In this document: piece after piece, positions 19,884 to 20,023 of the stretch
Layout: the number at the start of each line of letters is the position of its first letter
Position numbering within the stretch: the stretch's first letter is position 1
Source: a virus
Direction: 5' to 3' (one strand)
IMG/VR virus record: IMGVR_UViG_3300027908_000022
Coordinates: 77,686 to 104,108 of that record
Length of the DNA: 26,423 nt
Notes under the pieces: generated by a model
The model's input: the letters and a program-made list of their open reading frames with translations, nothing else
What the model was told of the DNA's origin: nothing
The model's database searches: none
Position numbers and translations under genes: made by a program

Positions 19884-20023
19884 CGAGGCGGGTCGTCGCT
19901 GTTCCGTTACCCATCGGAGGCCGCTACCTGGGTTCAACTCCCAGCCACCGCCGCAAGGCGGAGGTCGTCTAACGGTAGGACACGGAAAATCTCGGAGCGG
20001 CAATCTTCATCCGCCTCTTTTTT
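19884..20023 (+). ncRNA. Y-like RNA 1 with a permuted tRNA mimic
   Basis: Begins 6 nt after the Ro60 stop. Outer stem GAGGCGG (19885-19891) with CCGCCTC (20011-20017), followed by six T. Inside: a perfect T-arm CTGGG-TTCAACT-CCCAG (19928-19944); directly joined 3' acceptor strand CCACCGCC; a GCAA tetraloop; 5' acceptor strand GGCGGAGG (one A-A mismatch); then TC and a D-arm GTC-TAACGGTAG-GAC like that of tRNA-Glu. A helix UUCCGU/ACGGAA (19902-19907/19982-19987) could replace the anticodon stem. This circularly permuted order, acceptor closed by a GNRA loop, is how bacterial YrlA Y RNAs mimic tRNA. It is not a usable tRNA: there is no free acceptor end and no anticodon arm. Confidence 0.85.

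What the first reader, a model, noticed from the sequence alone, without database searches (positions are those of the whole stretch)
19928..19982. Circularly permuted tRNA-Glu-like module inside Y-like RNA 1
The T-arm with a canonical 7-nt TTCAACT loop comes first, abuts the 3' acceptor strand without a gap, is closed by GCAA to the 5' acceptor strand, and is followed by the tRNA positions 8-9 (TC) and a tRNA-Glu-like D-arm with GGTAG in the loop. The preservation of D- and T-loop bases that normally make the elbow contact implies selection for an L-shaped fold, perhaps to attract tRNA-modifying enzymes or a nuclease such as PNPase, or to decoy host tRNA sensors.
Basis: partly seen in the sequence, partly recalled or inferred. 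Interest (0 to 1): 0.8.

Follow-up and report, generated by a model that had tools for sequence, protein, structure and literature searches.

The report
Phage Y RNA with tRNA mimic
A virus of bacteria carries a Ro60 protein gene followed by three small Y RNA genes, one of which contains a rearranged tRNA look-alike; this kind of RNA is already known from bacteria and some phages, but relatives found here carry the same look-alike in both possible strand orders.

Summary
At 19928-19981 lie a T-arm, an acceptor hairpin closed by GCAA, positions 8-9 and a D-arm, in circularly permuted tRNA order. They sit inside a Y-like RNA (about 19884-20023) that starts 5 nt after a Ro60/Rsr gene (18133-19878) and is followed by two plain Y RNAs. 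The architecture is known: YrlA-class bacterial Y RNAs, with a crystal structure (6CU1) and earlier reports from mycobacteriophages. So the window holds a new phage member of a known kind. The elbow argument holds for the class: beside 40 Ro loci the tertiary 15-48 (Levitt) pair covaries although it was not selected on. The window itself is one of the few exceptions (A15, C48), and free folding slightly prefers another pairing. 'tRNA-Glu-like' should read Glu/Gln-like.

Relatives gave one unexpected result. In 31 other Ro loci the same parts occur in normal tRNA order, with the Ro-binding stem in place of the anticodon arm. Rfam's tRNA model recognises three of these at full length. On the Ro tree the two orders switch several times. 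I found no description of this in the papers I could read, but the key Y RNA papers were not available.

The parts
18133..19878 (+). Ro60/Rsr protein gene (TROVE + vWA with DVSGS MIDAS motif); by comparison with relatives the start is more likely ATG 18184
   Evidence: Pfam TROVE 2.4e-39, vWA_Ro60 3.1e-65; phrog_850; D. radiodurans Rsr 2NVO E 1e-123; alignment A1
19884..20023 (+). Y RNA 1 (YrlA type): basal Ro-binding stem 19885-19893/20009-20017, motifs GGGTCG 19890-19895, GTTACC 19906-19911, CTTCATCC 20005-20012, tRNA-like module in the middle, T6 tail 20018-20023
   Evidence: sequence, folds, same motifs in Y2 and Y3
19921..19923 (+). 5' strand of the anticodon-stem stub (CCG), pairs with 19983-19985
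   Evidence: constrained fold; class-wide register test
19924..19927 (+). variable region 44-48 analogue (CTAC, 4 nt); C48 at 19927
19928..19944 (+). T-arm CTGGG(TTCAACT)CCCAG
   Evidence: model R1
19945..19964 (+). acceptor hairpin CCACCGCC-GCAA-GGCGGAGG (3' strand first, A-A mismatch 19947/19962)
   Evidence: model R1
19965..19966 (+). tRNA positions 8-9 (TC)
19967..19981 (+). D-arm GTCT(AACGGTA)GGAC, Glu/Gln type
19982..19985 (+). A26 and 3' strand CGG of the anticodon-stem stub
20025..20092 (+). Y RNA 2: plain Ro-binding hairpin, stem GTCCGGGT 20027-20034/ATCCGGAC 20079-20086, GGTTACC, CTTCATCC 20075-20082, T6 tail
   Evidence: fold -24.8 kcal/mol
20100..20187 (+). Y RNA 3: plain Ro-binding hairpin, stem CGCTCGGGT 20100-20108/ATCCGAGCG 20172-20180, GGTTATCC, CTTCATCC 20168-20175, T6 tail
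   Evidence: fold -39.5 kcal/mol

Best explanation
The window carries a phage Ro60 ribonucleoprotein locus: a Ro60/Rsr gene followed by three Y RNAs. The first is a YrlA-type Y RNA. Its two ends pair to form the stem that binds the phage Ro60 protein (inferred from conserved motifs). Its other end folds into a circularly permuted tRNA body without anticodon loop and without free acceptor end (secondary structure supported by comparison; the L-shape inferred from covariation of the 15-48 pair in relatives and from the known 6CU1 structure). The tRNA-like end most likely serves as the effector-binding module: host tRNA enzymes such as TruB and DusA modify it and host PNPase docks there, so that Ro60 and PNPase are tethered into a RYPER-like machine acting on structured RNA during infection. 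The docking and the role in infection are inferred from bacterial studies and not shown here. Y2 and Y3 lack the module and probably act as plain Ro60 ligands or gates. The confidence given is for the identification as a YrlA-type Y RNA; for the PNPase tether in this phage it is about 0.5.
For: Ro60 identity. Three adjacent RNAs share GGGTCG / GTTAYC / CTTCATCC and each ends in a T run. The module is found by a model trained without it. Same module beside Ro in many phages and bacteria, 95:2 by strand, e.g. Gordonia phage Cashline, Microbacterium phage FuzzBuster, Mycobacterium phage Sparky, Nocardia and Methylobacterium genomes. Unselected tertiary pair 15-48: G-C 27 and A-U 9 of 44 unambiguous permuted modules; 34 of 35 rows of alignment A2 form a standard pair there. 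Anticodon-stem stub peaks at the tRNA register, variable region 5 nt and one unpaired nt 26: 41% vs 9% with shuffled partners. Known biology of YrlA: PMC8394870, PMC6181284, PMC11472068, PMC7790460.
Against: Free folding prefers an alternative in which the D-arm does not form; the tRNA-like fold is 1.3 kcal/mol worse and D-stem pair probabilities are 0.16-0.18. The window has A15 with C48, not a standard Levitt pair. No expression, binding or modification data. No PNPase, RtcB or ATP-grasp RNA ligase was found in the 104-kb contig, so the effector would have to be the host's; the contig may be incomplete.
Confidence: 0.85

Rival explanations
1. The tRNA-like end is an anti-defence decoy: it binds host nucleases or sensors that recognise the tRNA body (anticodon nucleases and the like) and, lacking an anticodon loop, cannot be cut, so it spares the phage's own tRNAs.
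For: Phage carries about 30 predicted tRNAs. The authors of PMC7790460 suggest competitive inhibition of an anticodon nuclease for Salmonella YrlA.
Against: The same module is common beside bacterial chromosomal Ro genes, so it is not a phage invention; no defence gene or nuclease link was found here.
Confidence: 0.15
2. The module is a remnant of two tandem tRNA genes fused by deletion, with no function of its own.
For: Adjacent tRNA genes give the same T-arm/acceptor/D-arm order, and such pairs score up to 32.6 bits in this phage's tRNA array.
Against: Short GNRA/UUCG acceptor loops, embedding in a Y RNA, covariation of acceptor and 15-48 positions across loci, strand bias 95:2.
Confidence: 0.03
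3. Resemblance by chance in a GC-rich hairpin region; the RNA folds into the alternative minimum-energy structure.
For: MFE fold lacks the D-arm; the loose scanner score is reached once in 20 shuffles.
Against: Model E 1.3e-8; position beside Ro60 and homologous modules in relatives, including L094 with the same D-arm type.
Confidence: 0.02

Closest known systems
YrlA-class bacterial Y RNA (Salmonella YrlA, PDB 6CU1; Chen et al. 2014; Wang et al. 2018)
   Same: Beside a Ro60 gene; basal stem from both ends; T-arm, acceptor and D-arm in circularly permuted order; length about 90-150 nt (PMC8394870; PMC11472068)
   Different: Phage-borne, downstream of Ro60, Glu/Gln-type D-arm (most modules here have the generic TA-GCTC...GAGC D-arm), 15-48 is A-C, followed by two plain Y RNAs; no rtcBA operon
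Y RNAs of mycobacteriophages with Ro genes
   Same: Phage Ro60 plus tRNA-like Y RNA; mycobacteriophage Y RNAs are reported (PMC12282133, citing Chen et al. 2014)
   Different: Ro protein at most 46% identical; gene order differs (module upstream of Ro in those read here)
D. radiodurans Rsr / Y RNA / PNPase (RYPER)
   Same: Ro60 ortholog and Y RNA tether; effector end with T-arm-like hairpin (PMC6181284)
   Different: No PNPase on the phage contig; interaction not shown
Tandem or permuted tRNA genes
   Same: Same order of arms
   Different: No anticodon arm, no free acceptor end, not called by ARAGORN

Membership tests
YrlA-class bacterial Y RNA | Encoded next to a Ro60 ortholog | tested here: met
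   Starts 5 nt after the Ro60 stop codon
YrlA-class bacterial Y RNA | Long basal stem from paired 5' and 3' ends with Ro-binding motif shared with sister Y RNAs | tested here: met
   9-bp stem, GGGTCG/CTTCATCC in all three RNAs
YrlA-class bacterial Y RNA | Domain with T, acceptor and D arms in circularly permuted order | tested here: met
   Model R1 38.1 bits
YrlA-class bacterial Y RNA | Elbow bases U54 U55 C56 A58 with G18 G19, U8 and A14 | tested here: met
   TTCAACT, AACGGTA, TC
YrlA-class bacterial Y RNA | Standard 15-48 Levitt pair (common in the class, not strictly defining) | tested here: not met
   A15 with C48; 3 of 44 modules show this combination
YrlA-class bacterial Y RNA | Modified by TruB and DusA; binds Rsr and an effector such as PNPase | not testable with these tools
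   Needs biochemistry
Ro60/Rsr protein | TROVE ring plus vWA domain with MIDAS DxSxS | tested here: met
   PF05731, PF25045, DVSGS; 2NVO E 1e-123
tRNA | Canonical order, anticodon arm, free 3' end | tested here: not met
   ARAGORN none; Rfam tRNA not reached in the window
Rfam RF01656 nematode sbRNA (for Y2, Y3) | Score above gathering threshold | tested here: not met
   22.6 and 21.1 bits against 38

The most novel reading that the evidence does not exclude
Ro60-associated Y RNAs exist in both circular permutations of one and the same RNA: the permuted (YrlA) order of the window, and a normal tRNA order in which the Ro-binding stem replaces the anticodon arm of an otherwise complete tRNA body. 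Evolution has switched between the two orders repeatedly, so selection keeps the three-dimensional tRNA body and not the order of the strand. Some normal-order forms may be matured by tRNA end-processing enzymes (12 of 45 encode NCCA at 73-76). The probability given is for this being both real and not yet described.
Probability: 0.6. Interest if true: 0.7.

Novelty: new member of a known kind. Interest (0 to 1): 0.5.

Why it matters
For the window: it adds a phage whose genome has a Ro60 locus and a 30-tRNA array, and a Glu/Gln-type tRNA mimic. More widely: natural Y RNAs in both strand orders are a ready-made experiment on what the tRNA mimicry is for. Any partner that needs only the folded elbow should bind both forms, while end-processing enzymes (RNase P, RNase Z, CCA-adding enzyme, aminoacyl-tRNA synthetases) could act only on the normal-order form. 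Normal-order Y RNAs may also be sitting in databases as odd tRNAs, since Rfam's tRNA model and ARAGORN pick up some of them.

Tried and rejected
Rfam gathering scan of the window: nothing; with a loose cut-off a weak tRNA-Sec match over 19863-19952 (24.6 bits, gathering 47) takes the T-arm into a wrong cloverleaf and was rejected. Close relatives by Ro protein alone in viral contigs: none; an alignment query worked. A scan for Glu-type permuted modules in viral contigs mostly returned tandem true tRNAs with a tRNA-Glu or -Gln second; only candidates without an intact tRNA were considered, and most had no Ro match nearby. 'tRNA-Glu identity mimic' was considered because U11-A24, U13-G22 and A46 are present (identity elements recalled from the tRNA-Glu literature, not checked here), but the same D-arm occurs in tRNA-Gln, so it was dropped as a claim. 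RtcB, ATP-grasp RNA ligase and RNase PH/PNPase in the phage contig: none. The main papers on YrlA (Chen 2014, Wang 2018, Sim 2020) were not held and are cited through other papers.

Full report
What is there. The window is the last 26 kb (77686-104108) of a 104-kb phage contig from IMG/VR with phage portal, head and tail genes. ORF 18133-19878 (+) is a Ro60/Rsr protein: Pfam TROVE and vWA_Ro60, phrog_850, and E 1e-123 to the D. radiodurans Rsr structure 2NVO. Its best match among named phages is 46% (Gordonia phage Cashline). Five bases after its stop codon begins a row of three small RNAs, 19884-20023, 20025-20092 and 20100-20187. Each has a closing stem, GGGTCG on the 5' strand, GTTAYC inside, CTTCATCC on the 3' strand and a T6 tail. 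These are Y RNAs by position and shared motif.

The module. I add two parts: a 4-nt variable-region analogue (CTAC 19924-19927) and a 3-bp stub (CCG 19921-19923 with CGG 19983-19985) where the anticodon stem of a tRNA would be, with A26 between it and the D-arm. The Y RNA body is thus joined to the tRNA body where the anticodon arm would leave.

More than chance. A structural scanner run over loci fetched with Ro60 queries finds such modules without overlapping intact tRNAs 95 times on the Ro strand and 2 times on the opposite strand (some of the 95 are duplicate or overlapping loci). A covariance model built from 35 of them, without the window, finds the window module as its only hit (38.1 bits, E 1.3e-8). 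Two cautions: on shape alone the window's scanner score is reached once in 20 shuffles, and tandem tRNAs of the same phage score up to 32.6 bits with the model. The helices' covariation is partly by construction, because the scanner asked for pairing.

An unselected test of the L-shape. Positions 15 and 48 were not constrained by the scanner; in real tRNAs they form the Levitt pair. In 44 unambiguous permuted modules (acceptor loop of 5 nt or less) they are G-C 27 times and A-U 9 times, with 8 others (Fisher p 7e-6 on the G/A by C/T table). U8 is kept in 42 of 44, A21 in 41, a purine at 26 in 42. The stub pairs best at exactly the tRNA register. These sequences are related by descent, so the p-value overstates the evidence; still, 34 of 35 rows of alignment A2 form a standard pair, with seven U-A against twenty-six C-G. 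For the class, selection for a tRNA-like elbow is therefore well supported. The window itself is an exception (A15, C48), and its free fold prefers an alternative by 1.3 kcal/mol.

Known or not. Bacterial YrlA RNAs are described as a basal Rsr-binding stem plus a domain like the D, T and acceptor arms of tRNA, modified by DusA and TruB, with PNPase at the effector end (PMC8394870). The Salmonella structure 6CU1 superposes on tRNA as a circular permutation (PMC11472068). Y RNAs are reported for mycobacteriophages (PMC12282133). The window module belongs there by all features I could test except the 15-48 pair, which is not defining. 'tRNA-Glu-like' is better 'Glu/Gln-like': the same 17-mer D-arm lies in a tRNA-Gln of L381. 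Of the nearest phages in the Ro tree, L094 (permuted) and L095 (normal order) also have TCGTCT...GGAC D-arms.

What the relatives showed. Close Ro relatives L095 and L096 lack a permuted module but have the same pieces in normal tRNA order: 5' acceptor, 8-9, D-arm, then the Ro stem with its 3' strand first (CTTTGCCCG-TTCG-CGGGCCG), GTTACC, variable region, T-arm, 3' acceptor. A scan for that order gives 45 distinct cases in 31 loci on the Ro strand and none on the other strand; 40 of 45 inserts hold the Y motifs in the expected order. The 15-48 pair, again not selected, is G-C 21 and A-U 19 of 45 (p 5e-9). Rfam's tRNA model matches three such RNAs end to end at 118-134 nt: L095 3990-4123 (53.4 bits), L080 1732-1860 (45.4) and L096 3756-3873 (37.2); the L080 one is a second copy that was not in my list of 45. 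Unconstrained folding of L095 3789-3910 and L080 1177-1300 gives a cloverleaf-like fold with acceptor stem, D-arm, T-arm and the Ro stem as the third arm; L096 and L018 fold otherwise. Twelve of 45 have NCCA at 73-76, where about 1 in 64 is expected for equal base use. No locus had both scans calling overlapping modules.

Evolution. On a Ro tree of 26 loci the two orders need 6 changes (5-7 over the 5-95% range of 200 bootstrap trees), with 3 forced by well-supported branches. Shuffled labels need 7.7 on average, so on this set the label is hardly clustered. A quick tree of 80 loci needs 10 changes against 23 shuffled. The window groups with L094 (permuted; 86/73) and lies in a set of 13 rows (88/85) of which 10 have the normal order. 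This assumes that Y RNAs travel with their Ro gene, and support near the window is moderate. L103 was set to 'permuted' by hand, L094 from its sequence.

Mechanism. Shown here: the parts, the class-wide tertiary covariation, the two orders. Inferred from published work on other bacteria: Ro60 binds the basal stem, the tRNA-like end docks enzymes or PNPase. The contig encodes no PNPase, RtcB or ATP-grasp RNA ligase that the searches could find, so a host partner is needed. A tether of phage Ro60 to host PNPase, redirecting it to structured RNA, is the most likely use; a decoy for tRNA-body-binding nucleases is the main rival.

Limits. Chen 2014, Wang 2018 and Sim 2020 could not be read, so the novelty of the normal-order form is uncertain. 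No expression data exist for this contig.

Noticed in passing
L095 3789-3910 and 3990-4123; L096 3755-3874; L080 1177-1300; 31 loci in all: Y RNAs in normal tRNA order, with the Ro-binding stem in place of the anticodon arm; Rfam's tRNA model matches some at full length with a long insert.
   Followed up: yes
L094 1773-1825: In a permuted, Glu-type module of a related phage the T-loop reads TGCGAAT and the D-loop AGAAGCCT: both bases of the 18-55 elbow contact are changed together.
   Followed up: partly
window 20025-20087 and 20099-20180: Y2 and Y3 give weak hits to the nematode stem-bulge RNA family RF01656 (21.1 and 22.6 bits, gathering 38), sharing UGGGUUAYC with these Y RNA relatives.
   Followed up: no
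window 10359-13766: One 1135-aa frame holds a phage portal domain (residues 53-439) and a NUDIX domain (645-748).
   Followed up: no
L182 (phage contig 62600-69000): Array of about 30 ARAGORN tRNA calls on the minus strand, 16 of them found by Rfam tRNA in the contig search, with two tRNA-Glu.
   Followed up: partly
L023 1758-1880, L044 1721-1843, L054 3812-3943, L076 1675-1797: ARAGORN calls parts of normal-order Y RNAs as tRNA-Met, -Tyr or -Asp, so such RNAs are probably misannotated as tRNAs.
   Followed up: no
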